Assembly: GCF_026151205.1 (NCBI RefSeq)
Contig: NC_087078.1
Coordinates: 19,456,265-19,520,264, forward strand
Length of the DNA: 64,000 bases
Reading direction: 5' to 3'
Source: Bolinopsis microptera
Taxonomy: Eukaryota > Ctenophora > Tentaculata > Lobata > Bolinopsidae
The notes below the pieces were generated by a model. The model saw only the letters and a list, made by a program, of their open reading frames with translations. It had not been told where the DNA came from and did not search any database. A program made the position numbers and the translations under genes. Below are positions 25,795 through 59,751 of this stretch, piece by piece. Each line of letters begins with the position of its first letter. Position 1 is the stretch's first letter.

Positions 25795-25798
25795 GTTC

Positions 25799-27923: not shown

Positions 27924-28210
27924 AAAGACCCCCATTTATATTTATATCTTTTACATTTTACACCTGTCACTCACATCATATATACACCACAAAAGAAAAA
28001 GATTCATTCAATCATTACATTATACACTCACTCCACCAAACACGCACACAACCCATTGAATAAGGTTACACGCGGGTGTACCGTTTGACGGATGTTACTC
28101 GTCTAAGTTTCTTCGAAGTAGCGCGCGCCGCTTTCTTCTCGAAACGTTAGACGGGAGAGAAACGAAAGATCGAGCGCTCAACTTAGCGCAAACTTGACTA
28201 ATATCGCGCG

Positions 28211-30304
28211 TTACCGCGAGCACATTATATCATTTCTGCATAATATTGTGACACTGTGACAGCACGGATACTGGACAGAATTGATATGAACGTAATCTGG
28301 TAAGTTCGCTATATCGATTGAGTTCTTCATTATGTTGGCATTCAATAAATAGGCTTGGTCAATTTGAAGTGGTCTATCTAAGCAAGACAAGTCACAAGAA
28401 TTCGAATACATTTCATACCATCAATAACTCGTTTCAGTCAATATAAGTATGCCATTTGCCAACATGCACAACAGTTATAAGTTAAGTTTAATTGCACCCG
28501 CGATCAATTACAAAAGCCAAATATGATAAATAACATATGACATAAAACCAGTAAAGAGTTAAGTTTACAAGTAGAAATACAAGACCCCAAAATACTTTCA
28601 GTGCAGCTATCACAGATAATGCTAAAAAATTGCATATTACAAGCCGGGTTCACAGGCTTCCTGAAACATCGTACGTATGCAACCCACTGTCATAGTTATA
28701 ATATATAATATGTTATATAGTATGTATACTGGTCGAAGTAAATCCTATGATCATAATTCAAGGGTTGGGATTGTGTTCACATTTCACAGTTCAGTCACAA
28801 AATAATTGAAGGGTATTGTCTATCAAGTATTACATGTTGATGTAGCATTAAGTAGAAGGAATGTCCAATCGTTGATCTGTATAACATTTAACCAAGATTG
28901 ATGTCTTACGTTGTTCATCATGAAGCATATACTTAAGGCTGATCAAGCTGAATTTCTGATCTCCGGTTGCCTGTCGTTGCCTGCAGTCGACCTGCGACAA
29001 AATCGGAATATTATTGATAGCACTAATAGTAGTAAGATCCCTCTTGTATCTCACTAACACAATTGGATGTTCAAATGTTTTCAAGTCATTCAAGGAACAG
29101 AATATTCTTTAATTTATACATGCAATTTATACATTATACAATTTATATATACTTCAATAGTTAAATCTCGATCTTAAACTTCTAGAACTTGTCTTAGTTT
29201 GAACAGCAGTCTGAATGAGGGCAAGAGCAGGTTTTAGGGACTTGAGACACTGAAAATCTAGGTACCTGTAAAGAATGAATTTTAATCAACGTTATATTAA
29301 AATCTTGCAGAAAGTTTAGAAACTATACATGAAATACGGCCACATTGTTGCCTCCTCTCTCACAATTTCTCTTGTACCCCAAGGTCCAAAAATGTACCTT
29401 TATTGGCTCTGCGGCTCAGTGCATTGTGTCTTAAAGTCTCACTACTCACTAGTGTATTACTCTTTTCTAACATTTAAGACAGATCTAGAAATAATTGATT
29501 ATGTTATTAATTAGATTTCAACGTGTAAGACTAGGGAGGAAGAGATGAAGGTAGGACTAAGATTGATAGCGGCTAAGATTCCGCACCATCAATTTGGCGG
29601 CAATGCAGACTCACAGGATGATCCAAAGCAACCCGTAACTTAGACCCTAGCTAGACAGTACGTTACGCGTTGCGTAGTAGATTACGTAATGGAGTTTTTG
29701 TTCTAGCTAGACGGTAGTACGTGATCCTGTATTTGATTCTAACTAGACGGCACGTATTACAGTACCTGATATAGTATTTGATACTAGCTAGACCACATAA
29801 GACCTTCACGGACGTTCTACTAGAAGACGAAAATCCTTCCAGATTTCATCTGGATCGACCTAGGCAGGTAGGAACTAGGCAGGTGCTTGAAATCGGTAAA
29901 GGATACCAAGGTTGCAATGTCAGAGTTAATTAATTCAACGCATGTTACCTTACCATCAGTGAATCTAAGTTCTAACTACCTCCTTAGTGCTCTCGTAGTC
30001 ATCAATATAGTCTCTGTTCAGACTGTTTGAGGCCAGATAACCATCAAGTTGGGACTTGAGCTAATATATTTTGAATTCGATTTTTCTTCGTTGTATTTAA
30101 TAATTAAATTCATTTAGCTGTTAGCTTACGTTTCCGGCCGTAGGCTCAGTTTGAATTATCCCTACAATGTTTTCCCCCCTTGAAAGTCATCTCACTTGCG
30201 ACTGAGGAAGGGGGTGTCCAGAATGTTGGTTTTCCGCCTGCTCCAGCTTGTCCTTCAAATATCTGATCACCACGTTGTACGGAGATACGGGCCCGTCTGA
30301 AGTA
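28211..30304 (-). CDS. Unrecognised multi-exon gene inside the giant element
   Basis: I do not recognise the product. Phase-compatible exons with GT-AG borders on the minus strand: 30304-30196 (TSDGPVSPYNVVIRYLKDKL..., ends phase 0), 30060-29980 (LKSQLDGYLASNSLNRDYID...), 29859-29821 (VDPDEIWKDFRLL) and 29638-29615 (LRVALDHP), all phase 0. A further exon begins near 29269. Then come 28991-28910 (VDCRQRQATGDQKFSLISLK...) and 28377-28211 (RPLQIDQAYLLNANIMKNSI..., stop), which join in phase 1. The first exon and the link between the two groups are unresolved; they could be two genes. It is divergent from the transposase gene, so the region 31.6-32.0 kb may be a shared promoter. The function could be accessory to transposition or captured cargo. 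Confidence 0.5.
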
Positions 30305-30632
30305 CTGCGTAGGAGTTGGTCAGTTAAGATTCCAAGTCACTGCATGTATCATAACCTTTCTCTGATTGAGTCGTCAGTATCACTGTACCTTAAGAACGAC
30401 AAATTTAGTCTACCATAAATTTAGTCAAACTTTTGACCATGTGACTAAAATTGTTGTTAACCAAATTTCATGTGACTAAATTTTTCGGCGATTAATTTTG
30501 AAGTAGACCAAAATTTTAGTACGAATTAAATTTTATTGAGCCTAAATTCTTTATCATATGTTTAAGATAACAGTTAAATATCGCTAACTGTACACAGGTC
30601 CCTACTGCGTGTATAAATAAGAAATTGTATGC

Positions 30633-31575
30633 TAACGGGTGATGACTAAAAAATGGGACTTTTTTCAAGGGTCTTTTTAGTGTCGATAAAACTATTTTTG
30701 GTTCAAACCAATGAAACAGCGTTGTAAAGCGGGCAATTTTGAACAAGTATGGTCAATGACAAGCGCCCATGAGCCCATTTTGATTGGTTCAGGAGGGCTT
30801 CTTTCTTCAAGCTCAAAAATCCGTCTGTACAGTTGGGCCTAAAATCGTGTTGGCGCAGTCTCTTCTTTTGTGCCCTAGGGCTCATGTAGGCTTTCTAGCC
30901 ATATTTCGGGCATGTACATGTGTTGCCAGGACTCCAAAAAAGTCCTCTATGGGTTGAGATTGTCAAAATTTACTTTGGTCGATCACTTTTTGGACGAAAT
31001 TAACCCTACATATTTTTGAATTTGCTCACGACTTCTCATTTTTAGGTCTTATCTCTAATCCTAAAGGCTTTGACATCTTTCAAACAACAAACATTTAGTC
31101 ATGTGACTGCCCTGGAAATATAACCGAGAGTACAGCCAAAACGGATCACCAGGGAGCCGGTTATGTGGCTCACCAGCAGTTCCTACTGGGTCATTTTCGT
31201 AAGTGCCATAATACAGGATGGCATTTTTGTCTCTGTAGCTCTGGCTACCGACCTCTGCTGCTAAAATCGCTTTAGGATGTGATAGATGGGAAGTTTAGGC
31301 ATACTCTCTGCTAAAAAGTTTTTGGTATGGAAGCTTGAACTACCTGTGAGGCGACTTCTGTGAACAGTGCTTTACTGTAAAAATTTTATAGGACCCCTCC
31401 CCTAGTTCGAGACCATTATCGGGGACAAAGATCAACCAATTTGATCAAATGGGGGCGGAGACTGTTCGAGTATCGTTCAGAGTAACTGGTGGTTGTGGTA
31501 AAATATCAAAATGTTGTTCAGGTGGAAGCTGAGGGCTAAAAAACATGTAGTCCCATTTTTTATTCATCACCCGTT
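30633..31575. mobile_element. TA-flanked inverted-repeat element nested in the giant element
   Basis: ACGGGTGATGACTAAAAAAT plus GGGACT (from 30633) and AGTCCC plus ATTTTTTATTCATCACCCGT (to 31575) are inverted with one mismatch over 26 bp and flanked by TA on both sides, the Tc1/mariner-type target. Short frames inside look like chance. No complete transposase is visible. Confidence 0.65.
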
Positions 31576-32050: not shown

Positions 32051-32089
32051 ACCAAATCTCGCATTTTTAGTTTAAATCTTTAATAAGTT

Positions 32090-35000
32090 ATGCCAAGACC
32101 TAAGGTAGCATCTACAGCTTGTGATTTATGTGGGAAGCAGGAGCGAGGTTACACCCGGGTTGCCCCGGATGCAACTTCGGAAACAGCTAGCCAAGCGTTC
32201 ACCAGCATCGTTACTTTGTTAGGCGGGGTTTTCCCTTTTAAAGAGCTGGTGCTGTGCAGATCACACTGTTGGCGTTATGTGATTCATTTAGCTAAGGAAC
32301 TGAACAAGGTTATTTAAAGAATACTCACTTGAATTGTTAGTTGATTTATTAATATAGAGATCGTTCCGAGCATTCGTTTTTCTGATAGCGTCATCTCGTT
32401 TATACTACGTAACAAGTAAAAAAACAGGCCCGTCTTTAATCAATGTTATAATTTAACATACCAAATTATTGCATTCAGAGTAAAGTAATAGTACGCTCCT
32501 CCACTTCTTTTCGAAACCTACCGTTCGTTCATTAATATCAATATTCTAGAGTTACAATTAATAAACTAATATAAGACGTTTAGTCGATGAACTAAAAGTT
32601 GTTTTTTGAGTCGTCTACAAAACTTGACTCAGATTTGAATATGATTTATCAGGATGGCCTTCATTTCATTAAACGTGCTGCCCAATATTCTAGTATCCGA
32701 TCGCAATCATATTGTTACTTTGATTCTAATATTTCAGTATTATGACTGGCGTTTTATACTTCTAAGTTCTAATCTAGTTACAATAGTGAAGTATTACACA
32801 ATTTTGACGCATCAAGTCTCTTTACAATGCCTGGAAAAGTGCGAGTTGTGAATTCAGAATTGTTGTATTTTTATTCGCCAACATATTGTAATTAATTCAC
32901 CATATTACATTGGCGCGTGCCACCAAATCTCATTCGTGTAGTAAAGTAGTAAGAACATACGATATACCAACCGATCCGGTGTAAATTACACCATGGCGCA
33001 TAACTAATGCTAAATTAAAATTGCACAGTGTACCTCGTGTAACCGTGTTATAAAGGAATATCCCATAACAACTGTGAGTACGGTCAGATTCATGTATTAA
33101 CTGAACAAGCTATTTGTTACATGAACTATAAATGTTACTTCTAATCAAATCACAATATTTAAGTGTTACACTTCTAATCGTATCATAATATTTAAGTGTC
33201 CCACTTCTAATCTTGTTACAATATTTAAGTGTTACATTTCTAGTCATGTTACATTATCAAAGTGTTACACTTCTGAAAATGTCACAATAGATAATTGTGA
33301 CGCATCAAGTCTTGTTTCAATACCTGATCTGGAGTAATTGTAGTTCCCTCGCAAACTAAACTTGTCTCCTTGAAATCGGCCACATTGTCTCTTCAAAATG
33401 TTGTGCTGTGAATCAGTTCCTGCGATAAGTTGACTGATACAGTAATCATTACAGTTCTAAAGTTCAGCTTAAAATCAAAACTCCTCCTTCCACAGACAAA
33501 TTACATTACTGTCAATACCGTTAAATCGTTCAATAGTTAGAAACAGTAGGATTTAAGGACAGCTATGTGATTATATTAGTTAGCTAGATTATATTAGTAC
33601 TAGCAAGTTTCAAAGTCAAGTAAAATAGGTCCTGTGAAGTGTGAAAACACCAGATGTGTTACAATATATTAGTGAAGCGTGACACTTCTAGTCTTATTAC
33701 AATAAGGTGCTAGCCGGAGGCTCTTCTGACGTTTAGGATAACATGATATGAGCTAAAGCTTTCTTATTGTAAAGGCTGGAAAAGTGTGAGTTGTGAATTC
33801 AGAATTGTTGTATGTTTTTGTATTTTATTCACCATATTACATTAGCGCGTGCCACCAAATCTCATTCGTGTAGTAAGAACATACGATATATAACTAACCG
33901 ATCCGGTGTAAATTACACCATGGCGCATTACTAATACTAAATTAAAATTGCACAGTGTACCTCGTGTAACCGTGTTATAAAGGAATATCCCATAACAACT
34001 GTGAGTACGGTCAGATTCATGTATTAACTGAACAAGCTATTTGTTACATGAACTAATGTTACTTCTAATCAAATCACAATATTTAAGTGTTACACTTCTA
34101 ATCGTATCATAATATTTAAGTGTCCCACTTCTAATCTTGTTACAATATTTAAGTGTTACATTTCTAGTCATGTTACATTATCAAAGTGTTACACTTCTGA
34201 AAATGTCACAATAGATAATTGTGACGCATCAAGTCTTGTTTCAATACCTGATCTGGAGTAATTGTAGTTCCCTCGCAAACTAAACTTGTCTCCTTGAAAT
34301 CGGCCACATTGTCTCTTCAAAATGTTGTGCTGTGAATCAGTCCTGCGATAAGTTGACTGATACAGTAATCATTACAGTTCTAAAGTTCAGCTTAAAATCA
34401 AAACTCCTCCTTCCACAGACAAATTACATTACTGTCAATACCGTTAAATCGTTCAATAGTTAGAAACAGTAGGATTTAAGGACAGCTATGTGAGCGATTA
34501 TATTAGTACTAGCAGGTTTCAAAGTAAAGTAAAATAGGTCCTGTGAAGTGTGAAAACACCAGATGTGTTACAATATATTAGTGAAGCGTGACACTTCTAG
34601 TCTTATTACAATAAGGTGCTAGCCGGAGGCTCTTTTGACGTTTAGGATAACATGATATGAGCTAAAGCTTTCTTATTGTAAAGGCTGGAAAAGTGTGAGT
34701 TGTGAATTCAGAATTGTTGTATGTTTTTTGTATTTTATTCACCATATTGCATTAGCGCGTGCCACCAAATCTCATTTGTGTAGTAAGAACATACGATATA
34801 TAACTAACCGATCCGGTGTAAATTACACCATGGCGCATTACTTATACTAAATTAAAATTGCACAGTGTACCTCGTGTAACCGTGTTATAAAGGAATATCC
34901 CATAACTTAACTGTGAGTACGGTCAGATTCATGTATTAACTGAACAAGCTATTGGTTACATGAACTAATGTTACTTCTAATCAAATCACAATATTTAAGT

Positions 35001-38000
35001 GTTACACTTCTAATCGTATCATAATATTTAAGTGTCCCACTTCTAATCTTGTTACAATATTTAAGTGTTACATTTCTAGTCATGTTACATTATCAAAGTG
35101 TTACACTTCTGAAAATGTCACAATAGATAATTGTGACGCACCAAGTCTTGTTTCAATACCTGATCTGGAGTAATTGTAGTTCCCTCGCAAACTAAACTTG
35201 TCTCCTTGAAATCGGCCACATTGTCTCTTCAAAATGTTGTGCTGTGAATCAGTTCCTGCGATAAGTTGACTGATACAGTAATCATTACAGTTCTAAAGTT
35301 CAGCTTAAAATCAAAACTCCTCCTTCCACAGACAAATTACATTACTGTCAATACCGTTAAATCGTTCAATAGTTAGAAACAGTAGGATTTAAGGACAGCT
35401 ATGTGAGCGATTATATTAGTACTAGCAGGTTCAGAGTCAAGTAAAATAGGTCCTGTGAAGTGTGAAAACACCAGATGTGTTACAATATATTATGTGAAGC
35501 GTGACACTTCTAGTCTTATTACAATAAGGTGCTAGCCGGAGGCTCTTCTGACGTTTAGGATAACATGATATGAGCTAAAGCTTTGTTATTGTAAAGGCTG
35601 GAAAAGTGTGAGTTGTGAATTCAAAATTGTTGTATGTTTTTGTATTTTATTCACCATATTACATTGGCGTGTGCCACCAATCTCATTCGTGTAGTAAGAA
35701 CATACGATATACTAACCGATCCGGTGTAAATTACACCATGGCACATTACTTATACTAAATTAAAATTGCACAGTGTACCTCGTGTAACCGTGTTATAAAG
35801 GAATATCCCATAACAACTGTGAGTACGGTCAGATTCATGTATTAACTGAACAAGCTATTGGTTACATGAACTAATGTTACTTCTAATCAAATCACAATAT
35901 TTAAGTGTACACTTCTAATCGTATCATAATATTTAAGTGTCCCACTTCTAATCTTGTTACAATATTTAAGTGTTACATTTCTAGTCATGTTACATTATCA
36001 AAGTGTTACACTTCTGAAAATGTCACAATAGATAATTGTGACGCATCAAGTCTTGTTTCAATACCTGATCTGGAGTAATTGTAGTTCCCTCGCAACTAAA
36101 CTTGTCTCCTTGAAATCAGTCTCTTCAAAATGTTGTGCTGTGAATCAGTTCCTGCGATAAGTTGACTGATACAGTAATCATTACAGTTCTAAAGTTCAGC
36201 TTAAAATCAAAACTCCTCCTTCCACAGACAAATTACATTACTGTCAATACCGTTAAATCGTTCAATAGTTAGAAACAGTAGGATTTAAGGACCGCTATGT
36301 GAGCGATTATATTAGTACTAGCAGGTTCAAAGTCAAGTAAAATAGGTCCTGTGAAGTGTGAAAACACCAGATGTGTTACAATATATTAGTGAAGCTTGAC
36401 ACTTCTAGTCTTATTACAATAAGGTGCTAGCCGGAGGCTCTTCTGACGTTTAGGATAACATGATATGAGCTAAAGCTTTCTTATTGTAAAGGCTGGAAAA
36501 GTGTGAGTTGTGAATTCAGAATTGTTGTATGTTTTTGTATTTTATTCACCATATTGCATTAGCGCGTGCCACCAAATCTCATTTGTGTAGTAAGAACATA
36601 CGATATATAACTAACCGATCCGGTGTAAATTACACCATGGCGCATTACTTATACTAAATTAAAATTGCACAGTCTACCTCGTGTAACCGTGTTATAAAGG
36701 AATATCCCATAACTTAACTGTGAGTACGGTCAGATTCATGTATTAACTGAACAAGCTATTGGTTACATGAACTAATGTTACTTCTAATCAAATCACAATA
36801 TTTAAGTGTTACACTTCTAATCGTATCATAATATTTAAGTGTCCCACTTCTAATCTTGTTACAATATTTAAGTGTTACATTTCTAGTCATGTTACATTAT
36901 CAAAGTGTTACACTTCTGAAAATGTCACAATAGATAATTGTGACGCATCAAGTCTTGTTTCAATACCTGATCTGGAGTAATTGTAGTTCCCTCGCAAACT
37001 AAACTTGTCTCCTTGAAATCAGTCTCTTCAAAATGTTGTGCTGTGAATCAGTTCCTGCGATAAGTTGACTGATACAGTAATCATTACAGTTCTAAAGTTC
37101 AGCTTAAAATCAAAACTCCTCCTTCTACAGACAAATTACATTACTGTCAATACCGTTAAATCGTTCAATAGTTAGAAACAGTAGAATTTAAGGACAGCTA
37201 TGTGAGCGATTATATTAGTACTAGCAGGTTTCAAAGTCAAGTAAAATAGGTCCTGTGAAGTGTGAAAACACCAGATGTGTTACAATATATCAGTGAAGCG
37301 TGACACTTCTAGTCTTATTACAATAAGGTGCTAGCCGGAGGCTCTTCTGACGTTTAGGATAACATGATATGAGCTAAAGCTTTGTTATTGTAAAGGCTGG
37401 AAAAGTTTGAGTTGTGAATTCAAAATTGTTGTATGTTTTTGTATTTTATTCACCATATTACATTGGCGTGTGCCACCAAATCTCATTCGTGTAGTAAGAA
37501 CATACGATATACTAACCGATCCGGTGTAAATTACACCATGGCACATTACTATACTAAATTAAAATTGCACAGTGTACCTCGTGTAACCGTGTTATAAAGG
37601 AATATCCCATAACTTAACTGTGAGTACGGTCAGATTCATGTATTAACTGAACAAGCTATTGGTTACATGAACTAATGTTACTTCTAATCAAATCACAATA
37701 TTTAAGTGTTACACTTCTAATCGTATCATAATATTTAAGTGTCCCACTTCTAATCTTGTTACAATATTTAAGTGTTACATTTCTAGTCATGTTACATTAT
37801 CAAAGTGTTACACTTCTGAAAATGTCACAATAGATAATTGTGACGCATCAAGTCTTGTTTCAATACCTGATCTGGAGTAATTGTAGTTCCCTCGCAAACT
37901 AAACTTGTCTCCTTGAAATCAGTCTCTTCAAAATGTTGTGCTGTGAATCAGTTCCTGCGATAAGTTGACTGATACAGTAATCATTACAGTTCTAAAGTTC

Positions 38001-41000
38001 AGCTTAAAATCAAAACTCCTCCTTCTACAGACAAATACATTACTGTCAATACCGTTAAATCGTTCAATAGTTAGAAACAGTAGGATTTAAGGACAGCTAT
38101 GGTGAGCGATTATATTAGTACTAGCAGGTTTCAAAGTCAAGTAAAATAGGTCCTGTGAAGTGTGAAAACACCAGATGTGTTACAATATATCAGTGAAGCG
38201 TGACACTTCTAGTCTTATTACAATAAGGTGCTAGCCGGAGGCTCTTCTGACGTTTAGGATAACATGATATGAGCTAAAGCTTTGTTATTGTAAAGGCTGG
38301 AAAAGTGTGAGTTGTGAATTCAAAATTGTTGTATGTTTTTGTATTTTATTCACCATATTACATTGGCGTGTGCCACCAAATCTCATTCGTGTAGTAAGAA
38401 CATACGATATACTAACCGATCCGGTGTAAATTACACCATGGCACATTACTTATACTAAATTAAAATTGCACAGTGTACCTCGTGTAACCGTGTTATAAAG
38501 GAATATCCCATAACAACTGTGAGTACGGTCAGATTCATGTATTAACTGAACAAGCTATTGGTTACATGAACTAATGTTACTTCTAATCAAATCACAATAT
38601 TTAAGTGTTACACTTCTAATCGTATCATAATATTTAAGTGTCCCACTTCTAATCTTGTTACAATTTTAAGTGTTACATTTCTAGTCATGTTACATTATCA
38701 AAGTGTTACACTTCTGAAAATGTCACAATAGATAATTGTGACGCATCAAGTCTTGTTTCAATACCTGATCTGGAGTAATTGTAGTTCCCTCGCAAACTAA
38801 ACTTGTCTCCTTGAAATCAGTCTCTTCAAAATGTTGTGCTGTGAATCAGTTCCTGCGATAAGTTGACTGATACAGTAATCATTACAGTTCTAAAGTTCAG
38901 CTTAAAATCAAAACTCCTCCTTCCACAGACAAATTACATTACTGTCAATACCGTTAAATCGTTCAATAGTTAGAAACAGTAGGATTTAAGGACCGCTATG
39001 TGAGCGATTATATTAGTACTAGCAGGTTTCAAAGTCAAGTAAAATAGGTCCTGTGAAGTGTGAAAAACACCAGATGTGTTACAATATATTAGTGAAGCGT
39101 GACACTTCTAGTCTTATTACAATAAGGTGCTAGCCGGAGGCTCTTCTGACGTTTAGGATAACATGATATGAGCTAAAGCTTTCTTATTGTAAAGGCTGGA
39201 AAATTGTGAGTTGTGAATTCAGAATTGTTGTATGTTTTTGTATTTTATTCACCATATTACATTAGCATTTAGCGCGTGCCACCAAATCTCATTCGTGTAG
39301 TAAGAACATACGATATATAACTAACCGATCCGGTGTAAATTACAATATTTAAGTGTTACATTTCTAGTCATGTTAAATTATTAAAGTGTTACACTTCTGA
39401 AAATGTCACAATAGGTAATTGTGACGCATCAAGTCTTGTTTCAATACCTGATCTGGAGTAATTGTAGTTCCCTCGGAAACTAAACTTGTCTCCTTGAAAT
39501 CGGCCACATTGCATTACTGTTAATACCGTTAAAATTACATTACTGTTAATACCGTTAAATCGTTCAATAGTTAGAAACAGTAGGATTTAAGGACGGTTCT
39601 ATACTAGTTCTGTGAGCGATTATATTAGTGGCAGGTTTCAAAGTCAAGTATTCAAAGTCAAGTAAAATGGGCAATATGAAAATTATCCTGTATCAAGAAA
39701 AATTTTGAAGCCAGCCACTTTATGAGTGGTCTCAAGTCGACAAAAACTTTCCATATAATATGATTATTGAATATTAAATGTTAGTTAGGCGAGACATATT
39801 TTGTTTTATCATAATAATTAACCTAATTTACTTTATAACTGTTTCTTTTGCCAGATTGAAGACGTTCAGGGCCAAGTCGACCAGTTTCGTATTAACATAT
39901 TGGGGACAAGCAGACAGCCCAAAGCGTCCTCGACCACGAGAACAGCAGTTAGTTCATCTCGATCAAGATGTAAGTGAATTAGTGAAATTTGCCAAATTTA
40001 ATACAATTTAAAGCAACAATCATGTTTAAAAAAGTTTATAGTATGTCTATTATATTAAAACTTGACTATAAAAACTAATCTACACACAGTCAAAGAAAAC
40101 AGATTTCGAATTAAGATAACTTAATTTCTCAATTTTAACCTGGGTCAACTGTTATTACTTCCATGAAATCTAATATTGAAAACTCTTCAAATGCCAAAGG
40201 CCAAAGCCACTGCTATCTTAATTTGTAATTCCTTCTCTGTATCAGGAACAGTCGAGTTCTGCCCTCCTTGACACCTTGGTACGCTTGCTGACAAAAGAAC
40301 GACGGCAGCTACTCGCATTAGAAAATCCATCGATTTTGCGAATGAAAAATACGGAGATAATTGCAAGTGATGGGACAAAAAGTGGTAGGTTATTTTTCGC
40401 CTGATAATCTGATTGCTAACAACTGGTGTCTAATTGAAATAACTGGTAGGGATATAATGATTCGTTCGATGTGGAAATCATGACTACTATTTCAGAGATA
40501 TCAGACTACAGATGTCTTGAGATGGTGGACTCCTCAGCTGATAGCTGAGGAGTTATGCGATCGAGCATCGGTAACATACAAGATAATGTCAACACTCCTC
40601 CGGAAAGTAGACGACAAAGACGATGCTTTACAAAAGCGAATTGGCATCGCGACCGGAGTTATCATGAATTTAATGAGCCAGAAAATGAGTGTGTATGCTA
40701 CGAAGCTGGGTGTCACACTGGTTGCTTCAGGTAACCCATGTAATATTTCAGTAACATTATGCAAGAGTGGCCTGCCTGGCAAACCCCGTATTCTACTTTA
40801 ATATTCCACCTTCTAGTATATATATACTTGTAATTTTTCAATTTTCATTTTCTTATCGTATCGTATATGTTTACCTCGCCCGCCCGCGCCCGTCTGAGTC
40901 TGTGCATCTTATACCCTTGTATTTAATGTCTTCCATAGAAAAAATAGGCTCTAAATGGTTATAAGTAAAACTTCTTAGGTTTGTCGAACAGATCTATTGA

Positions 41001-44000
41001 CGTGTTGGGGTCAATGGGGATCACTTGTTCCAGCAAAACTGCCAGGGGAATTATTAAGCTTGCGGGAAATAAATGTGACGAAATGGCAATGATAATCCTG
41101 GAATTCCAGAAGAAAGCTATCACTCTACCAGATATCACTTTAAGTTCGCTCGCAGACCTGCTGGACGAGCTGATGAAGGCCCCGTACCTTTACTTTGGAA
41201 GAAACCGGTTTCCTCATAAGTTTGTGCTAAACGGTAAGATTAGCTGAAGACTATTTACACACGTATTTTGAAAGCTCTTGCAAATAAAATCTTTTCGTAT
41301 CACTTATATGTTTTAAATAAACCCCCTCCAGGTAAGATCACGTTCAAAGATTGTGACCAAATCACTAACATATCATATTTAAATTTACTTTTATTTCTTC
41401 CGAGATAAAATTTAACGATCGTCAACCACTAATCACTTGTACTGTTATTTCAGAGTCAGGGGGTATATCAATAGGATACGCTAATGTTGATTATCCTATC
41501 CCTACTCGTATTCTTGTTCCTCGTGGAGTGCTTGGTGGGGACAATTTCAACAGGGTAATAAAGACGCAGAGCTGGGGCAAGGAGACCCGGATAGATATAT
41601 TTCACCTCATGATTGTGATTCAGGGTGTGCGTGCTCCTATATCCATGTCGTGGACAAAACCTGAGATACCGATCAAGAACCTCACAGGTATTGTAGGTAT
41701 TATAACATGAAAATTGCTCTATACTAGCATTAGTACTTATATTATGAACTATGAAGATCCACAACTACGAACTTCTCGTAAGAGCGCTAATATTTATTGT
41801 AATTATTACATATCTAATAAAAAAAATTATTCACGTAAAATTATACAAACTAAAACTAAGCTATTTCAGAAGCTGATCTCAGACCCTCGTCGGCCGAGTG
41901 CGAGTTGCTCCAGAGCCAGTTCGTCGAGGAGGCTATGATTGAGATCGTGGACAAAGATCCGGATCTAACCTTCGCGAAGGAATGGTTTAATCCTCATCTT
42001 CAGCACAAACTGAGGAAGACCATGGATCTCGCCTCTGTCGTCGCAACCTGGGAATAGTGGACGAAAACCAGGTGTCAACCGCGGGAACCATTAAACATCC
42101 TGAAAACCGCAGCAAAATATTGCAATCTGGATGGGGTAAGTCTTTACGAATTTGTGTGTGTGTAACTTCATTGATCATTCCTTCGGTTTCGAGACTGATT
42201 TTCGTAAACTTAACTCTGGGCTTTAATAGGTGTGTTGTGATAACTTAATTAACTAAACAACAAAGTTGACGAAGAATAAAATATTCAGATCACATGGTTT
42301 TTTGGCGACCAGATGACACAAGAGAAAGTGCAGAATGCCAAGATCGCCATGGCAAGTGTCAACGACCCAGTACACAAGCACACGAGTACGACGGGAACTT
42401 TCACACCCTCATGACACTCCTCACGGTATGCGTTCTAATGAAAAATTAACTTATTCAGATCGTGTTGTTATTAAATGTAAGACCACACAGAATTGTTTCC
42501 GATGTTATAAATCCTTTGGAGTTGTTCCACGAGAACGCGCTGATAACCAACCTCACAGTTACAAGTTACTTAACTAAAGATTATCAATTCTGACATTTAA
42601 CTCTTGACCTTCTAAAACTTTATGTGTTCATTTTAAAATATATTTTATTTAAAAGCTAATAGTTAGTATGTGATTAGCATGAGTTACAAGAGTAACAAGA
42701 GTAACAAGAGTAACAATACATTTTTTTAAAAAAATATCAACATATCAGGCAATAATGAAGCTGGTCCACTCCGAAGAATCCAAACTAGAGAAGGCCTCTT
42801 TTACAGGAAGCTGCTACGCATTAGGTAATCCCAAGGCGGCCATCTCTAATGTCAAAAAGGCGTACCAGAAGTGTTTAAACGCCTGGACGCATTACTGGAA
42901 AGCAATGCTACTCAGTGCTTGGGATAATATGAAGGAAGACCACCCCGAGACGATGGAATTGTTATCTCAATCACAGGGAAAAGAGGCATTTATGACAGAG
43001 CTAAGGTTTGCATCAACATCGAGTTATAATCATAATCAGATCTCATATTTATAATCGTTATCTGCCACGAGTAAAACAAATTATTATTAGTTTCTCATAC
43101 AGTACTGTACAACTTTTTGAGAATAAAAGACGCGGTGTATTGGGTATTGAGTTAGTTAACACGTTTAATTTTTAGCTGACGTCATTTATTTTCAAGGTGC
43201 AGTGGTTACGAGGTTAATGGACAGGATACTCCAGTTTAAAGTTAGTGACTGGAGAACGAACTTTCCCGTGTTTCAGTGTCCTGTGATTGATTGCCAGGTA
43301 AAATTTATCACACTATTGACATTTGATACCTGACAGTCGTACCGTACCTTTAAAGTAAAATTCCTCGATCATTAGTTTTTAAATGAAAACTGTCTCAATC
43401 TTTTATAATCCAAGTTTTAAACAGCCTGAAATTTAACGACTGACAAAGCTGCTTAAATAGGAAAAACTCTCGTCTGATTTATTGCAATAAAGCATCCTAA
43501 TCTCAATTTACAAATGAACTCTAAAAAATATATCTATTGAAATTTGATACTGACCTGGACCATTATAATTATGCAGGGCTGAGAAAACTAACCGGGCACT
43601 TCTGGTGCGGCACCTAGAGAAAGATCACAAGAAGAAACCAGAGGTCGCGGAGAGAAATGTGGAGGACAGATACGGACATTTGAAATCCGATGACCCATTG
43701 TAAGTTTGATTTAAGCGTCAATTTTGTAATTCCACAAATGATGTACTATGATTATATTGACGGAGGGAGTGTTCATAAAACGTATCATACATCTACAATT
43801 AAAAGGACCATAGTTGTAGCCCAATCTTTATCAGGGATCGTATGAATCTTTATTCGCTGGTCTATTAGCAGATGATTAAATTAAAATATTCAGAATACAC
43901 TGCTCCATAACTTAACTTGAACTTATCAGGTTTAACTACGGAAGACAGGTTCTCTATCTAGGTCTGCTCAACCACAATTTGATAAAGGCCATCAGCTACG

Positions 44001-45384
44001 GGGACGGGGAAAGAGAAACGTTGTGCCTCAAGTTCACAACCTCCATCTTTCGGTCGCTGGGGCACAACAAATATGCGTACCTGATGGTGAAAAGGCAGAT
44101 AACCACCAAGAGCATTCTCCCAGAAGCTGCGGCCTATGAGTACGTTCACAACACAACAATCGGTAAGTTTCATCAACATTTTTTAAAGCTATGAAAGTTC
44201 ATAGATTTTCTTAAGTCTTCGTTGCTGCAAACATGTTAACCGAACGAAACAGTGTAATATTCCCGGATTCTCCAGGTATGGGAATCGACCCGGTAAGAGG
44301 AAGTCCATGGACTATGTGATGGAGTTAGCCAACCTCATCCTCTCGCAGCTGATGGGCCAATCTTTCACAAAGGACAGCATTGGTGTGTCTGCAAGAGCCA
44401 TCAACTATCTTGACGGTTTGAAAAAGGAAGTCGAAAATGAAATAAGAGGTAAACTATTTCAAAGATCAATTAATATTATTATTCTGTTATTAATGATTTA
44501 CCTAAATTTAGTAACTTGGCTCAACATGTGCTTTATTGCTTTATCCTCTTTCATGAGAATAATTTAAACTAAATGAATTAAACGAAATTTCTGACTTATT
44601 CACATACAGGTATTAGTAGAAAAAAGAGCAAGGCGGAGAAAGACGTGGAGGTCCACAGAAAACTTATGACAGTCATAAAGGGAAAAGACCTCTTCCGGTA
44701 CAACCGCAGGAAGAAAGCCTTTTCCTGGACTCAACACTGCTAGGAACCTGCACAAGGACAGCAGACACACCAAGACATTCAATCTCTATCTCGCGGACAG
44801 TAAGTTACATAGCTTTTATCAATACAATAACATTAACAATTATCTGTGATCAATAAGTGACAATTGTGGCAATTCTTTATGAACTGGCGTAGCTATTAAG
44901 CTACGCTGTATCCTTACGAGAAAGCTAAACAAAAGGTTACAAATAAGAGACAGGCCATACAGCAGTGCATATCGAGACATAAACTAAACTGAGCTACCAG
45001 CCGTTAGCTCATTATTATATCATTGAATCCTTTGGCTTCCTGTAATGGGTAGTTACACTTGTATCACAATGTGGCTGTTGGAAAGTCCGAAGTAAAATTA
45101 AGTGGGAGATTTTAAAAAACTGAAAACTATCACACGACTGCACTGGTTTAATTTATTATTTTGTGTTCACAGGTTTAAAAAACGCTATAAAAGGACACGC
45201 CAGAAAGAATATGGTGACAATTGAGGATCTGGCTGACGGTACAATGTTGGATGATGAGGAAGATGAGGAGGAAGCTGATGATGAAGAGCTCGCAGAGGAA
45301 GAAGATGAGTGTGAAGAAGACGACCTCCTTCTTAAACACCAGCTTATAGTTAACTTTACAAACTATTACAAAGACCAAGAATAG
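32090..45384 (+). CDS. Putative transposase, DUF6589-like GDQ-motif protein with N-terminal zinc finger, ~15 exons, frame-damaged
   Basis: Exon 1 (32090-32304) encodes a ZAD-like finger (C11-x2-C14...C56-x2-H59-C60). Later exons: 39855-39969, 40246-40388, 40496-40730, 40979-41233, 41454-41687, 41870-42135, 42289-42425, 42749-43005, 43197-43297, 43577-43699, 43930-44162, 44276-44448, 44610-44799, 45173-45384. Landmarks: GGDNFNRVIKTQSWG, ITWFFGDQMTQEKVQNAKIA, GSCYALGNPKAAISNVKKAY, a C2H2-like CPVIDC...HLEKDH, FNYGRQVLYLGLLNHNLIKA and SYGDGERE, then an acidic tail (LDDEEDEEEADDEELAEEE). The GDQ and GDG blocks match what I recall of the DUF6589 family of fungi and invertebrates, whose activity is not established. 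Frame breaks are visible near 42035, 42090, 42380 and 44725, and several exon junctions do not join in phase, so this copy is probably defective or the assembly has indels. Length ~950 aa. Confidence 0.72.
32829..39660. repeat. ~900-bp satellite, about 7.5 tandem copies, in transposase intron 1
   Basis: The landmark ACACCATGGC..CATTACT recurs at about 32989, 33916, 34827, 35735, 36634, 37535 and 38436, i.e. every 899-927 bp. Copies are highly similar, with small indels (CGGCCACATTG present or absent, TTAAC/AAC). Each unit contains a shorter internal repeat of ~35 bp (CACAATATTTAAGTGTTACA...CTTCTAATC) and the palindrome GGTGTAAATTACACC. The last copy (from about 39240) is truncated and rearranged. 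The array accounts for nearly all of the 7.5-kb first intron. Confidence 0.95.
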
Positions 45385-45902: not shown

Positions 45903-48900
45903 ATGTTTGAGATAGAAAGCTCCCTCGCCCAACTGAACTTATCTGGTGAGAATTTGATATTTAAACGTAATACAAGATTTAAATTTGATCTACAAGTAAA
46001 CCAGTTTTAATCCTTGTTTCTTGTAAAACTAAAATAAAAAGTTCGACTTGCAAATTAATGTATATTCTGACACTTAAATAGAGTTTGATGATATTAACTT
46101 AATCCACTAATAATATCATTCATATAATCACTAATCAGCGGTTTAAGTTAATTTTGAAAAGTCATAGTCCGAGAGTAATAAAAGTGTTTTTCAGATGTCC
46201 AGTCTGACCTTTGGGGAGATTTCGCAATAACGATGACAGAAGAGCAAAAAACTGGGGTAGCAAATGTTCTGTCGGGAAAGGATGTCGTGGCAGCAATGCC
46301 GACTGGCAGCGGGAAGTCGCTTATCTTCCAAAGTATTACCTACTCGGCGGTCAAGCGAGGACTGAACTGCATAACATTGATAATAACACCATTAAAAGCA
46401 ATTTCATATACTCACGTTACCACATTCAAAGAAAAGGTTGGTGAAGTATCTTTATCGGACATATTCTTATTTTTAGCAGTGCTGATTTTTATAGCTATTA
46501 CCAGCTATTATCAGCTATTATCAGCTATTATCAGCCATGGTTCGACAATTTCCTTTATTCAATTTAAAAGCAATCGTTCTATGTGACTTTTAAAACTCAG
46601 GGTACCCATGATTAAAAACAGTATTCATCTCTCCGTAAGCGGAAGCACTCACAAAATTACAAAACTAATTGCAGTTTAGGGTCCGATGCTTGGATGCGGC
46701 AATTGATGATGTGGAGGCATTCAAAGGAAATGATTACAATGCGTTGGTGGTTCAGCCTGAGCTACTTGTCAGCTCTAAAGGAAAATTAGTGAGTGACAGT
46801 CGTTGATTATGCCAGATTGGAAACAAAATTATTTAAGAGTGATGTAGGACAGATTCTTAGGACTTAATGTGATAATACCTTGTACACTTATGACTTAAAA
46901 TACCTTGAAACCCCTTCGTTAGCTCTGAAATGACCGTACAATTTTTGTATCGTTAACTTACTGCAGATATTAGACGCTGTTGGAGAAAGGTGTACGCTGT
47001 ATGTGATAGATGAAGCTCATTGTTTAAAAACTTGGGGAGGAGGAGAACGGCCATTTAGAAAGAATTTTAAAGATCTCTCGCAGACAATCGCAAAATTAAA
47101 GGTAAGTCTTAATTTGAATCAGCAACTTTGTAGCAAAATTCGGTTGGTCTAGTAATCAGCACTAAAAAATACCTGTTAAATTTTTGTTTGAGTCATGATT
47201 CATATCTTAAGGTTTCAAATCATCTATGATCCGTCACCCACCACACCGTTTTCCTATTAAAGAGTAAGCAAATCATCAAAAATTAAATAGATGATCATTG
47301 AAACTCTTCAAATTCCGGACACTTTACAGTGCTTCAAAGTGTTTGTACTTTGTAAGCTAACTTTGTGTTTATTTTTATCAGAATAGACCAGTTATTCTTT
47401 GCCTCACTGCAACGATGAGCGAAATTTCTGAGAAAGTGACGATGAAAAGCCTGGGTATCGATCCGAAAACTGTAACCAAAATAGTAAAGAACCCAGTGAA
47501 CAGACGCATCAGTTATCATAACAGTAAGGGATGCCTCAATATACAGCCACTGATCGAACTTCTTTGTGCGGGAACCTGCCCAAGAGTGATCATATTTGAA
47601 AGTAGCTTGGTGAAGTGCGGAGAACGATATCTTGAAATGAAAGAGGTTTTCTAATAATTTGTTTTATAAATATTCCATGAGGCTCAGTCAGCAATACATC
47701 CGATCTAAAATTATATTGAAGTACACATTTTCAATAACTAATTATAAAACTTTTAATATTTCAAAACCGACAATGTGACAATAAAAACTTCAGGCCCTAT
47801 GTGATGCTGAGAGACCCGACCTGGTGGAAACAGTTGAGGTATTTCACTCCCAAATACCCGACATAAAACAAAACGAGATAGCCTCAAGCTTGATGACAGA
47901 GAATGGGATGGTGAGAATTGTTATCGCTACAAGTGCCCTAAGTATGGGGTTCGATGCAATAGGTAATTGTTACTATCTTAAGACTAAAAACAAAACAAAA
48001 AATAGAATAAGATACAGAAAAAAATCAAACAAATTATGCAAAACAATTAGCATGATTTAATAAGATGACATCTGCAATGAATGATTAAAATAAATGTTCT
48101 ACCTCACAGGAGTTCAGTACGTCATTCATGTACAAATGACAAAAACCCTCGAAGATTTTCTACAGATGTCCGGTGAGCTAAGCTTTGACGGTTTTTAAAT
48201 CATTCTTTGTGCTTGCGTACGCATTTTGATTTAACACGACCTTAGAAATGCTTCCAACCAACTACGCTACCACAAAACTTTAGCAATATATGATCCGTCG
48301 AATATTTTTTTGGAACCATCCGCTTACATATAAAAGCTACAAGTACATCTTTGAGGTTTTAAATTCAGATTCCCGTACAGGCCGAGCAGGACGGAAAGAG
48401 CATTTCAAAGCGTGCTGCCTTCTCTTTACAGATGACAAAACACGTGACATGGAGAAGTGCTGCGATCTGTATCGCAAACAAATGGATCAATGTCGAAGAA
48501 TGTTTCAGTCTTTGTACTTTGATGGTAAGTTAGACAATAATTATATTAGTGCAATGAGTAAATTAAAGCGTTTTACGGCGTGTGGGTACAGCGAATAGGT
48601 ATTATCAAGCAGACTAAAACTTAAAATACAAATTCAAAAACTTACCACATCCACGCTTTGCATGGCCGTGCTCCAGAGTCATCTTCTAAGTAATCGTTCA
48701 TGACTCATATGGTATCTTTTTCACCTGCAGAGTTGGACGAATTAAAAATTCAGGGTGACACTTATTAATGCTTTTTATACAAAGTTACAAACGGGTTACA
48801 ACTAAGTCTTCATATTATAATTATGTATCCTGGGTTTAGATAGGATATTACCCGCTTAAACATTTCCATCTTGTTACATAATACTCAAAAAATGTAATAG

Positions 48901-49693
48901 ATTTGTAGTGTTATAATTAGTTTAAACTTAACTAAGACTAAAAGTTTAACTTTAGACAAAACTTTAGAAAAAAACTCGAAATTTATCGAGGGGAAAGATT
49001 ATACAGTCTAGATTGCTAGATAAAAAGATATTAGACGATTAATAACTGAAAATTCGCACTCCTTTTTTAATTGACAACGACACTTGTTAGGGGAATGCGA
49101 GCCACACGACAATGTGGAAAACGATGGCTGCTGCGATATCTGTGACCCAGTTGTGAGTGACAACTTACTTAGGAATTTGTCAAAAGACAAACCGTCATCA
49201 ACCTCAAGTTACAAAGGTAATAACTAATTAATCACTATTTTGGAGAACATGAAATAGTTACACCAATTCTACAACTGTTGGTGTAAGATTTTATCTTTGA
49301 TATTGCACAGATTCGAGGTTGGATATCGTTTGATATTGGCTTAATTTCACAAAACTTCGCGTTATAAAGATGTTTTAATTGTTTAGTGGATCTAAAATTA
49401 TTAAAAACATCATCACTTTGACAAAAACATACTTTTCAGAGTTGGTTTTATGCAGAAGAGTAGCAGATAAAGACAAAGAAGACTTCAAAAAAGCTCTGGA
49501 ATACCAACAAACGTTCTACACCAACGAGATGCCGTTCGTTGATATTGGCTTAACGGACGGTATCGTTGCTTTGCTCGTTGCACATGTCAACAAAATAGCC
49601 AGCAGAGACGATATTCATCAATTAGTGCCGGGCTTAAGTGAAATCGTAGTAAAGGATATAATCTCGATTGTTAAAGACCTTTTTGATTTTTAA
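45903..49693 (+). CDS. RecQ-type DNA helicase, 521 aa, 10 exons, intact
   Basis: Exons: 45903-45945, 46195-46436, 46675-46788, 46967-47101, 47382-47645, 47794-47962, 48110-48172, 48369-48524, 49091-49216, 49440-49693. Every junction is GT-AG and in phase; the total is 1,566 nt. RecQ motifs in order: Q-motif Gln32, Walker A AAMPTGSGKSLIF (49-56), Ia ITPLKAI, QPELL, DEAH box VIDEAHCLKTWGG (148-151), III LTATMSE, IV VIIFESS, V VIATSALSMGFDAIG, VI SRTGRAGR, and the RecQ zinc module (CRRMFQSLYFDGEC...CCDIC). The ~85-residue C-terminus is unrecognised; no HRDC domain is evident. RecQ enzymes unwind DNA 3' to 5' using ATP. The gene starts 519 bp after the transposase stop in the same orientation, so it probably assists transposition or repair of the donor site. 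Confidence 0.88.
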
Positions 49694-49924: not shown

Positions 49925-50106
49925 ATAAGTATGAGTAGACAACTTGATATTTTGATTTTTGTTTCTGACATAACCAACCGGGAGGTCGTTGATAATCAAG
50001 TCCCCAGATACATTTCTGGTCCAAAGGTTGCCTGGTCGTAACTGTTAACACCATCAAGATCTGACTACTCCACTGCCTGAAATAATTTCTATTATATTTT
50101 GGCCTA
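49925..50106 (-). other. Possible decayed coding exon
   Basis: After a good acceptor (AAATTATTTCAG) the minus strand reads SDLDGVNSYDQATFGPEMYL and, one base out of frame, GDLIINDLPVGYVRNKNQN. These look like one protein segment broken by an indel, but a third frame is also open, so this may be chance. The rest of 49,694-51,300 shows no gene. It holds two hairpins: GTCTGTGTAAGT/ACTTACACGGAC at 50341-50370 and GGTATTTACTTA/TAAGTAAATACC at 50994-51019. Confidence 0.25.
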
Positions 50107-51310
50107 AATAAGCTGATCAGCGCTGACAAAATCTCGATATTTAGATTAAAACATATTCAGTTGATAAAACTTTCTCTGACTCACCATTTGGTACCATTAA
50201 CATATTATACTTGTTAACAGTATCTGATTAGTTTCCACGCATTGCAGGAGTATGGGCTAATGATACAGACGAAATTAACTTTGACTAGACTAAGAAAAAT
50301 ATAAAGCTTAATAATGTCCAAATATAGCTCGTCAAAATTAGTCTGTGTAAGTATAATAACTTACACGGACCGGCCAGGTTGCAAATCTCACATATCTCTT
50401 ATTTAACGTAATTAAATAAATCCAAATAGTAATTACGCCTAAGTCACAATCATTATGTTAAACGAAGAAATCGAGTTAAACACTATATTTTAAAGTTTTC
50501 TCACGCTTCGAATCTATGTTATTTCGATTTAGAATGATCAAACTTGTTATGACAGCTCATTAAAACAATTAGGCCCCGCGATCGATGCAAATGTATTTCT
50601 TCAAAAGCTAATGTACCAGTCACACAAAGCAATTTTTCACTGATTATACGAAATGTTCTAATTTCGAAGCGTAAATATGAAACACTGTTTTAGTTAAACC
50701 ATATCTAAATTGGGTTGCCATTTCATTCTGATGCAGAAAATAATTAGGCAAGAATAAAGTTGATGATTTAAATACCAAAAGAGCAACAGGCTGCAGTTCT
50801 GCAAGCTGATAAGCAGCAACAAATTACCAATCATGGACCCTCAGTTCTCACGCTTAAAATTTGAGCATTATCAAATTGGTGTTACAATTATCAAAACGTA
50901 TCAAGCCAGCTCGAAAAACAAATATCAAAAGACCACTGTAAATTATCTTCTTCAGGCAATGCAATAAAAAGAGAAGCTCATATGATAAACTACGGTATTT
51001 ACTTATGTAAGTAAATACCAGCTAACAGACTCCACAAATACCTCCTGCAATATGAGATCACTGATCACATCGCATTAATGTCATGACACAGCTGGTAGGG
51101 CAAAAGAAACACATGAAACCACAGAGAAGCTTAAAATAGTATAACACAATTGACAACGGTACAAAAACCTAACATCAAACTAACTTGCATTGATTCAAGC
51201 ATTGGATTTAATTGATTATTTAATTTATAATAATTGATTAGATAACACAAACTAGATAAACTGCTGCTTGATATTACAAGCTCTCCAAGATCTGAGAGTG
51301 ATACTGATTA

Positions 51311-51402
51311 TAGATAAGATTATAGATAAGAAATGATAGATAAGAAGTGATAGATAAGAAGTAATAGATAAGAAGTGATAGATTAGAAGTGATAGATAAG
51401 AA
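51311..51402. repeat. Short minisatellite (GATAGATAAGAAGT-like)
   Basis: About six to seven imperfect copies of a ~14-bp unit. Downstream (51545-51840) the right subterminal part of the giant element is unusually GC-rich, with two TCACGTGA octamers at 51629 and 51743. Confidence 0.8.
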
Positions 51403-52456
51403 GTCCTTCGAGGAATGAATCAACAATGAGCAGCAAGCGAATAACATGTAGCGTCGGAAAAATAACGAGCATACAACACGTACCAAGTACAGAGCGATTG
51501 AAACATAGCTTCTAGAATAATCCACATTCTTCTAGAACGGATCCAACGCGTGCTAAGATATACCATGTGACAATGTCAGATGATTCAAATCTGACGTCGC
51601 AATTGATTGAAATATATCACGCGCTGCATCACGTGACACAGTTTTCGGCCAATCGTAACCGCGCGTCTTGGTCACGCTTGGAGTACAGCGCTCACTTTCA
51701 GCGTGATCAAATTCTGGCCTTGTAATTGGTTGCGCGCGCACGTCACGTGACGTATCTCGTAGCCAATGTCATTCTACGGCACAAATCTGCCGTAAAACTC
51801 CTCGTTTTTCTATGGTCTGGCCCGATGGCAAGAGCTACGAAGTAGCGCGCGCCGGGCCAGATCATTAACAATGGTCAAGTGTACCGTTCGCTTTATCCGA
51901 AGGGAAAAATGATACTTTACGTAACGCGCGATTTACGTCTTGGTAGCTAAATTATTCAAGCGCTATTTGTCAGAGCGACACAAATACGCGCGGCGCGAGC
52001 GCTTGCGCGGCTCTCTTGTCCACCACTCATGTTTACATCGTACCAGGCAATGGTTCAGTTTAATTATGGTAAGGGCACAGCCTGTCAAAAACCCTTTTCG
52101 GATGATCCGTCGACACCGCCTGAAGGTGACTGCATAATAACGGATCATCGTGGAATCAAACGTTAATAAGCTTGCAGCTTCCGATGTCAATGTATTCATC
52201 CTGGTGTCGCATGCTTGAACTGGTTTTGGACCTCTTCATGCTTTTAATTTATTTATTATTGTTATTTAGTATTATGAGCTGATGTGTACATATACATACG
52301 GTATCTAAAAATTAAGCGTATAGCGAGCATATTTAAACAATTTTCAAGCAATAATGTATTGCAAGCAGCTTCAACTTAAATATCGCATAAAAATCATTTA
52401 ACTCAAAACTAAAATTTTATTGGAATATAGGAAAAACTAAAATAAAATTAATGTCA

Positions 52457-59737: not shown

Positions 59738-59751
59738 GATATTGACAGATA

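What the first reader, a model, noticed from the sequence alone, without database searches (positions are those of the whole stretch)
28085..51878. A 23.8-kb DNA transposon pairing a GDQ-motif putative transposase with its own RecQ helicase
Two distant sites share a perfect 9-bp direct repeat GTGTACCGT exactly outside sequences that act as transposon ends elsewhere in the window. Between them lie a ~950-codon zinc-finger/GDQ-motif protein, a complete RecQ-type helicase 519 bp downstream in the same orientation, and an orphan gene on the opposite strand. A chance 9-bp match at precisely these borders is unlikely. An intron-rich cut-and-paste element of this size that encodes a RecQ helicase is not a configuration I know as a described superfamily. 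If correct, it gives DUF6589-like proteins a role as transposases.
Basis: partly seen in the sequence, partly recalled or inferred. Interest (0 to 1): 0.95.

Follow-up and report, generated by a model that had tools for sequence, protein, structure and literature searches.

The report
Helicase-carrying DNA transposon in comb jelly
This 23.8-kb stretch of what appears to be a comb jelly's genome is a jumping DNA element that carries a putative transposase gene and a DNA-unwinding RecQ helicase gene; it looks like a new example of a transposon type already described as AcademH, and it suggests what an unnamed protein family (DUF6589) does.

Summary
Bases 28085-51878 form one inserted element: ends TTGACGGATGTTA.../...TAACAATGGTCAA, flanked by a perfect 9-bp duplication. 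The ends recur genome-wide. Of 29 end pairs examined, 18 have exact 9-bp and 2 exact 8-bp duplications; three further large copies show 9, 8 and 8 bp. Inside lie a DUF6589 gene (Pfam E 8.9e-21 on a draft splice; four frame breaks) and, 518 bp downstream, an intact 10-exon, 521-aa RecQ-family helicase. A predicted Mnemiopsis leidyi protein carries both parts in the same order (44% and 47% identity).

The claim of an undescribed configuration does not hold: DNA transposons with a helicase and 9-10-bp duplications are known as AcademH (Kojima 2020, seen only through citing papers). I file this as a probable AcademH member; the Academ transposase relationship and the DDD/E fold stayed untested. 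Apparently new: DUF6589 as probable transposase, and a ctenophore family with large non-coding derivatives and about 120-bp MITEs. Against: no second locus shows both ends around both genes, and five other large end pairs lack the genes. The opposite-strand orphan gene is unsupported.

The parts
28076..28084 (.). Left target-site duplication GTGTACCGT
28085..51878 (+). Whole element, 23,794 bp
   Evidence: ends plus exact 9-bp TSD; ends repeated genome-wide
28085..28097 (+). Left terminal sequence TTGACGGATGTTA (short imperfect inverted repeat with the right end: TTGACnnnTGTTA)
28114..28129 (+). Subterminal motif CGAAGTAGCGCGCGCC, left
28085..29793 (+). Left region shared with the non-autonomous copies
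   Evidence: A-E match 28085 to about 29.4-29.8 kb, with gaps
30634..31575 (.). Nested MITE-like insertion (inverted ends AACGGGTGATGA...); A-F are continuous across this place
32090..32308 (+). Transposase exon 1, Cys/His-bearing N-terminus (by inspection); present in copy F at 92% protein identity; its junction to exon 2 is not in phase in my model, so an exon may be missing
32900..39600 (.). About 900-bp tandem satellite (a 33-bp subarray recurs 7 times at about 900-bp spacing) between transposase exon 1 and the rest
39855..45384 (+). Remaining transposase exons: DNFN motif (exon about 41454-41686), GDQMT motif (exon about 42294-42426), C2H2-like finger by inspection (exons about 43196-43700), DUF6589 part; frame breaks near 42045, 42093, 42367, 44712
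   Evidence: DUF6589 E 8.9e-21 on draft splice; colinear with P0001; breaks
45903..49693 (+). RecQ-family helicase gene, 10 exons, open 521-aa frame, all nine introns GT...AG: 45903-45945, 46195-46436, 46675-46788, 46967-47101, 47382-47645, 47794-47962, 48110-48172, 48369-48524, 49091-49216, 49440-49693
51532..51878 (+). Right region shared with the non-autonomous copies
51838..51853 (+). Subterminal motif CGAAGTAGCGCGCGCC, right, in the same orientation as the left one
51866..51878 (-). Right terminal sequence, reads TTGACCATTGTTA on the minus strand
51879..51887 (.). Right target-site duplication GTGTACCGT
25605..25724 (+). 120-bp MITE with the same ends, 8-bp TSD ATTACCAA
52885..53008 (+). 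124-bp MITE with the same ends, 8-bp TSD with one mismatch

Best explanation
A helicase-encoding cut-and-paste DNA transposon of a ctenophore, most likely a member of (or sister to) the AcademH lineage. SHOWN: the unit 28085-51878 is flanked by a 9-bp target duplication, and its family makes 9-bp, sometimes 8-bp ones; its ends are reused by large derivatives without its genes and by about 120-bp MITEs; it carries a DUF6589 gene and an open RecQ-family helicase gene in tandem. INFERRED: the DUF6589 protein is the transposase. Its zinc fingers would bind the terminal TTGACnnnTGTTA and/or the subterminal CGAAGTAGCGCGCGCC sites, and an acidic active site (DNFN and GDQ motifs, probably RNase H-like) would cut both ends and join them to target strands 9 bp apart, repair of which gives the duplication. 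The helicase would open the ends, or help process or repair the excision or strand-transfer intermediate. Non-autonomous copies move in trans. The window copy's transposase frame is broken, so this copy could now move only with help from an intact source, which was not found here.
For: Exact TSD and ends. Of 29 end pairs examined, 18 have exact 9-bp and 2 exact 8-bp TSDs; copies A, B and C have 9, 8 and 8 bp. Ends recur: 40 left-end and 45 right-end matches, with 40 of 516 and 40 of 1360 candidates scored. DUF6589 E 8.9e-21. RecQ: PF00270 59.5 bits and PF00271 38.2 bits, both above cut-off; TIGR00614 E 2e-32; best solved matches BLM and RECQ5. Open 521-aa spliced helicase. Mnemiopsis P0001 matches both genes in the same order, 44% for the searched transposase region and 47% for the helicase. 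H carries both genes and the right end; F carries the left end and exon 1. AcademH: helicase and 9-10-bp TSD (PMC10045372, passage); RecQ in Academ (PMC3627910, passage).
Against: No second locus shows both ends around both genes: H lacks the left 471 bp, and no left end was found in the 15.6 kb read upstream of its break; F ends with its contig. Copies A-E (five large end pairs) and the 613-bp copy G carry neither gene by tblastn. 9 of 29 end pairs had no exact duplication. TSDs of 8 bp also occur, and AcademH is reported as 9 or 10. TIGR00614 is below its curated cut-off (112.6 of 219.8 bits). No Academ reference protein was available; both AlphaFold models failed (mean pLDDT 35 and 32), so the DDD/E fold is untested. 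The Kojima 2020 paper could not be read. The whole-genome DUF6589 search did not complete.
Confidence: 0.78

Rival explanations
1. An independent DNA-transposon superfamily: a DUF6589 transposase, not of Academ descent, that recruited its own RecQ helicase, as KolobokH apparently did in fungi.
For: RecQ helicases occur with two different transposase superfamilies, Kolobok and Academ (PMC9587614 and PMC3627910, passages). The Academ relationship of this transposase was not testable here. 8-bp TSDs occur beside 9-bp ones. No paper of the library names DUF6589.
Against: TSD length, helicase and presence in animals fit what is reported of AcademH. DUF6589 was probably named after the 2020 paper (recalled), so silence in print says little.
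Confidence: 0.15
2. A KolobokH element (Kolobok transposase plus RecQ helicase).
For: A RecQ helicase follows the transposase, as in KolobokH.
Against: Kolobok makes 4-bp TTAA duplications with 5'-RR...YY-3' termini, and KolobokH is reported only from fungi. Here the TSD is 9 bp of varied sequence and the termini are TT...AA.
Confidence: 0.01
3. Passenger genes: the ends belong to a family mobilised by another, unseen transposase, and this copy merely captured or surrounds unrelated DUF6589 and RecQ genes.
For: Five other large end pairs (A-E) lack both genes. Only the window locus is seen with both ends and both genes.
Against: H shares the coding interior and right end with the window copy, and F the left end and exon 1. 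A, B, C and E have large ORFs that read as retroelement insertions (by inspection). The gene pair recurs in Mnemiopsis in the same order. The pair is what a helicase-encoding transposon would be expected to encode.
Confidence: 0.05
4. Two separate MITE or solo-end insertions that happen to flank host genes, with a chance 9-bp match.
For: MITEs with these ends are common, and two lie just outside the element in this window.
Against: The 9-bp match at fixed borders has chance 6.5e-6. Left and right regions of about 1.7 kb and 350 bp, far longer than the MITEs' share, match the large copies. Between 27785 and 52200 the end patterns occur once each.
Confidence: 0.01

Closest known systems
AcademH (Kojima 2020, Mob DNA 11:15; known here from citing papers only)
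   Same: DNA transposon of animals and fungi encoding a helicase (title as cited); 9- or 10-bp target duplications (PMC10045372, passage); RecQ helicase in Academ (PMC3627910, passage).
   Different: 8-bp duplications in a minority; host is a ctenophore (whether ctenophores were in the 2020 survey could not be checked); the transposase carries Pfam DUF6589, a link not found in print here; relationship to Academ transposases untested.
KolobokH
   Same: RecQ helicase downstream of a DNA transposase (PMC9587614, passage).
   Different: Kolobok has TTAA 4-bp duplications and RR...YY termini, KolobokH fungi only; none of these fit.
AcademX
   Same: Same superfamily as AcademH.
   Different: 3-4-bp duplications and a nuclease rather than a helicase (PMC10045372, passage); here 9 bp, and no nuclease family matched in the Pfam scan of the two draft proteins apart from the helicase-type ResIII.
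Mnemiopsis leidyi ACHWQZ_G015565 (P0001)
   Same: DUF6589 domain followed by RecQ-type helicase; colinear with both window genes.
   Different: Annotated as one 1253-aa protein; window exons with the helicase N-terminus (Walker A part) have no counterpart in it.
Pfam PF20231 DUF6589
   Same: Both ctenophore relatives and the window draft protein match it above cut-off.
   Different: Described only as a family of unknown function; here it is tied to element ends and target duplications.

Membership tests
AcademH | Encodes a helicase besides the transposase | tested here: met
   Open RecQ-family gene 45903-49693
AcademH | Target-site duplications of 9 or 10 bp | tested here: met
   9 bp at this locus and exact 9 bp in 18 of 29 end pairs; 2 of 29 have 8 bp, 9 of 29 none exact; copies A, B, C have 9, 8, 8 bp
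AcademH | Transposase belongs to the Academ clade | not testable with these tools
   No named Academ protein available; three protein searches with capped candidate lists returned only two ctenophore relatives
AcademH | DDD/E catalytic core (RNase H-like fold) | tested here: inconclusive
   Both structure predictions failed (pLDDT 35 and 32); DN and GD motifs shared by the window protein and both relatives
AcademH | Characteristic termini of the lineage | not tested
   The 2020 paper is not held
KolobokH | 4-bp TTAA target duplication | tested here: not met
   9-bp varied duplications; definition from PMC9587614
KolobokH | Termini 5'-RR ... YY-3' | tested here: not met
   Termini TT...AA; definition from PMC9587614
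AcademX | 3-4-bp duplications and a nuclease | tested here: not met
   9-bp duplications; no nuclease family matched in either draft protein apart from the helicase-type ResIII
DUF6589 (PF20231) | Profile match above curated cut-off (27 bits) | tested here: met
   74.5 bits on the draft splice; 92.1 and 83.4 bits in the relatives
RecQ helicases | SF2 core with DEAD and Helicase_C domains most similar to RecQ | tested here: met
   Both Pfam domains above cut-off; TIGR00614 best NCBIfam match but below its cut-off, 112.6 of 219.8 bits; 48 distinct PDB sequences at E <= 0.001, best BLM

The most novel reading that the evidence does not exclude
DUF6589 proteins are the transposases of their own superfamily of large, intron-bearing DNA transposons with 8-9-bp duplications, distinct from Academ, which recruited RecQ independently; the ctenophore element would be an animal example with defined ends, duplications and an open helicase gene.
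Probability: 0.15. Interest if true: 0.75.

Novelty: new member of a known kind. Interest (0 to 1): 0.45.

Why it matters
It gives a functional reading, with ends and target duplications, to a Pfam family of unknown function that no paper in the 5.39-million-paper library names. It also gives an animal system in which the role of a transposon's own RecQ helicase could be tested. The genome holds large derivatives and many MITEs of the same family, so transposition substrates and minimal ends are already defined by nature.

Tried and rejected
Tried and rejected or failed. (1) Copies A-E as full autonomous copies: rejected; tblastn at E 1e-4 with the 30-aa-or-longer ORF peptides of 31900-32400 and 39600-51600 matched only F and H. 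A, B, C and E hold ORFs that read as retroelement insertions by inspection; D shows no such ORF (not every stretch of A, B, C and E was listed). (2) H as an old decayed copy: doubted. It differs from the window by 7.9% in helicase exons, 7.2% in helicase introns and 8.1% in the 3' region, with transition/transversion 0.39 and many short insertions over 39700-51530, while in the last 348 bp it has one mismatch and one 5-base insertion. Three control pairs of non-autonomous copies give 1.3-1.8, and three window-F pieces 0.43 (only 10 changes), 1.42 and 1.15. I read this as uncorrected long-read sequence of a near-identical young copy, an inference. (3) One 'exon' (about 42461-42584) in my draft transposase is not an exon: relatives join the neighbouring exons directly. 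It was still in the drafts used. (4) First protein search with the whole draft: no hit; the region search found two relatives; the alignment search found only P0001 again. (5) Structure: one model from P0002 alone, one from P0002 with P0001, both useless, so no fold search was made. (6) Minus-strand orphan gene: 10 ORFs scanned, two weak matches below cut-off, taken as noise. (7) A link of the GC-rich end motif to ctenophore chromatin-loop motifs: I read section 9 of PMC12221973; the motif's letters are not in the text, so nothing can be said.

Papers: passages only for PMC10799480, PMC10045372, PMC12210899, PMC8290104, PMC9587614, PMC3627910, PMC4522978, PMC9970103; passages plus section 9 for PMC12221973; other papers only as search listings; Kojima 2020 not seen (title and citations only).
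Full report
WHERE IT IS. The window is G000:C7:19456265-19520264 of a 264.65-Mb assembly in 232 contigs. A relative found by protein search, annotated Bolinopsis microptera LOC134818601 (P0002), lies on a contig of 26,206,493 bases, exactly the length of G000:C1. I therefore take the genome to be that of the ctenophore Bolinopsis microptera (taxonomy).

THE BORDERS. The element runs from TTGACGGATGTTACTCGTCT... at 28085 to ...TAACAATGGTCAA at 51878, with GTGTACCGT directly outside on both sides. A match of nine bases at two fixed borders has chance 6.5e-6 with this base composition. The short inverted repeat is TTGACnnnTGTTA. A 16-bp motif, CGAAGTAGCGCGCGCC, lies just inside both ends in the same orientation.

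THE FAMILY. The left end (175 bases) gave 40 matches and the right end (188 bases) 45; 40 of 516 and 40 of 1360 candidates were scored, so these are lower bounds. Among the loci then held, chosen from the best matches, 29 end pairs were examined: 18 have an exact 9-bp duplication, 2 an exact 8-bp one, and 9 none. Of these 9, the MITE at 52885 has 8 bp with one mismatch, and several others look nested or mispaired. Three large copies split over two loci were read separately: A (C9, 14.1 kb) AATAGGATA, B (C1, 13.3 kb) CAAAAGCC and C (C6, 9.7 kb) GCATTTGT. E (C8, 18.6 kb) has no duplication; another, inverted right end lies 5 bp beyond it. Nineteen 9-bp targets show at most a weak preference, G first and C at positions 7 and 9.

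WHAT THE OTHER COPIES CARRY. A-E share the first 1.3-1.7 kb (with gaps), some short inner pieces and the last 320-360 bp with the window copy, but none of the 30-aa-or-longer ORF peptides of 31900-32400 and 39600-51600 matched them at E 1e-4. They resemble one another. Large ORFs in A, B, C and E read as retroelement insertions by inspection, for example a gag-pol-like pair in E and a LINE-like ORF in A (no profile search made). I take them to be non-autonomous derivatives. Two loci share the interior: H (C10), colinear with 28556-51878, with right end but without the left 471 bp, and with no left end in the 15.6 kb read upstream; and F (C87), with left end and transposase exon 1 before the contig stops.

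THE TRANSPOSASE GENE. A draft splice matches DUF6589 at E 8.9e-21, 74.5 bits against a cut-off of 27. Mnemiopsis P0001 (44% identity over the searched region) and Bolinopsis P0002 (40%) match it at 1.1e-116 and 2.3e-99, and both carry DUF6589 above cut-off. Shared motifs include DN[FY]N, GD.[LM]T, DGNFHT, HSE.SKLEK and YGDGERET. A Cys-Cys-His-His finger is seen by inspection; zinc-finger profile matches in the relatives are below cut-off and absent for the window draft. In this copy the frame is broken twice in the exon near 41.9-42.1 kb, once near 42.37 kb and once near 44.71 kb. Exon 1 is separated from the rest by a stretch that holds about 900-bp satellite units, and its junction to exon 2 is not in phase in my model.

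THE HELICASE GENE. Ten exons, with GT...AG at all nine introns, give an open 521-aa protein from 45903 to 49693. TIGR00614 (RecQ family) is the best NCBIfam match at 2e-32 but below that model's own cut-off, 112.6 against 219.8 bits. The best solved relatives are BLM and RECQ5. It is 47% identical to the helicase part of P0001 over 437 columns. P0001 thus holds the DUF6589 part and the helicase part in the same order as the window, independent evidence that the pair travels together in ctenophores. That the two are fused in Mnemiopsis may be an annotation artefact, since the helicase N-terminus is missing there.

MECHANISM. Shown: target duplications of 9 bp (sometimes 8), shared ends, two linked genes, one with an open frame. 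Inferred: DUF6589 is the catalytic transposase, zinc fingers recognise the ends, and the RecQ helicase melts ends or resolves the intermediate. The DDD/E fold was not shown; both AlphaFold runs failed.

WHAT IS KNOWN. DNA transposons with helicases are not new. AcademH makes 9- or 10-bp duplications and encodes a helicase, AcademX 3-4 bp with a nuclease (PMC10045372, passage). 'RecQ Helicase in Academ' is mentioned in a 2013 paper (PMC3627910, passage). KolobokH has RecQ downstream of its transposase but only in fungi, and Kolobok makes TTAA duplications (PMC9587614, passages). AcademH is low-copy in several fungal phyla (PMC10799480, passage). The defining paper (Kojima 2020) is not held, so I could not compare termini, catalytic residues or host range. 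DUF6589 occurs in no paper of the library. Searches for Academ with Mnemiopsis (10 of 27 papers listed; the term also matches 'academic') or with ctenophore (1 paper) showed no title on this subject; these are limits of this library and of the listings, not proof of absence.

VERDICT. A real, well-bordered helicase-encoding DNA transposon; probable AcademH member; the useful new points are the DUF6589 assignment, the ctenophore host and the family structure. The strongest weakness is that only one locus shows both ends around both genes. The whole-genome DUF6589 search that would have tested this did not complete (calls listed in Tried and rejected).

Noticed in passing
G000:C10:864514-888444 (L051, L052, L057): About 8% uniform differences from the window copy with transition/transversion 0.39 and many short insertions, but only one mismatch and one 5-base insertion in the last 348 bp: looks like uncorrected long-read gap fill rather than real divergence.
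   Followed up: partly
window 30634-31575: MITE-like insertion with inverted ends AACGGGTGATGA(A/C)TAAAAAATGGGAC inside the element; copies A-F are continuous across this place.
   Followed up: partly
window 32900-39600: Tandem satellite of about 900-bp units between transposase exon 1 and the rest; copy A has its own tandem array of roughly 790-800-bp spacing.
   Followed up: no
window, from about 1480, 5200 and 60340 onwards: Long minisatellite arrays with 52-, 23- and 29-bp units.
   Followed up: no
window 9648-13522, 18829-19809, 22208-23830, 25767-27923, 58066-59751: Reverse-transcriptase ORFs of LINE-like retroelements; the first with an endonuclease domain and a following RNase H ORF; the one at 22208 is just below the Pfam cut-off.
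   Followed up: no
window 54971-56629: Tubulin-tyrosine-ligase-family ORF, uninterrupted over 552 codons, perhaps the nearest host gene.
   Followed up: no
G000:C8:10539698-10539757 (L047): An inverted right end lies 5 bp beyond the right end of copy E, which has no target duplication: possible end-to-end insertion into an existing copy.
   Followed up: no
L055-L056 (C10, copy J): An older-looking subfamily, roughly 71-79% like copies A-D on its left side but 91-97% on its right: suggests exchange between subfamilies.
   Followed up: no
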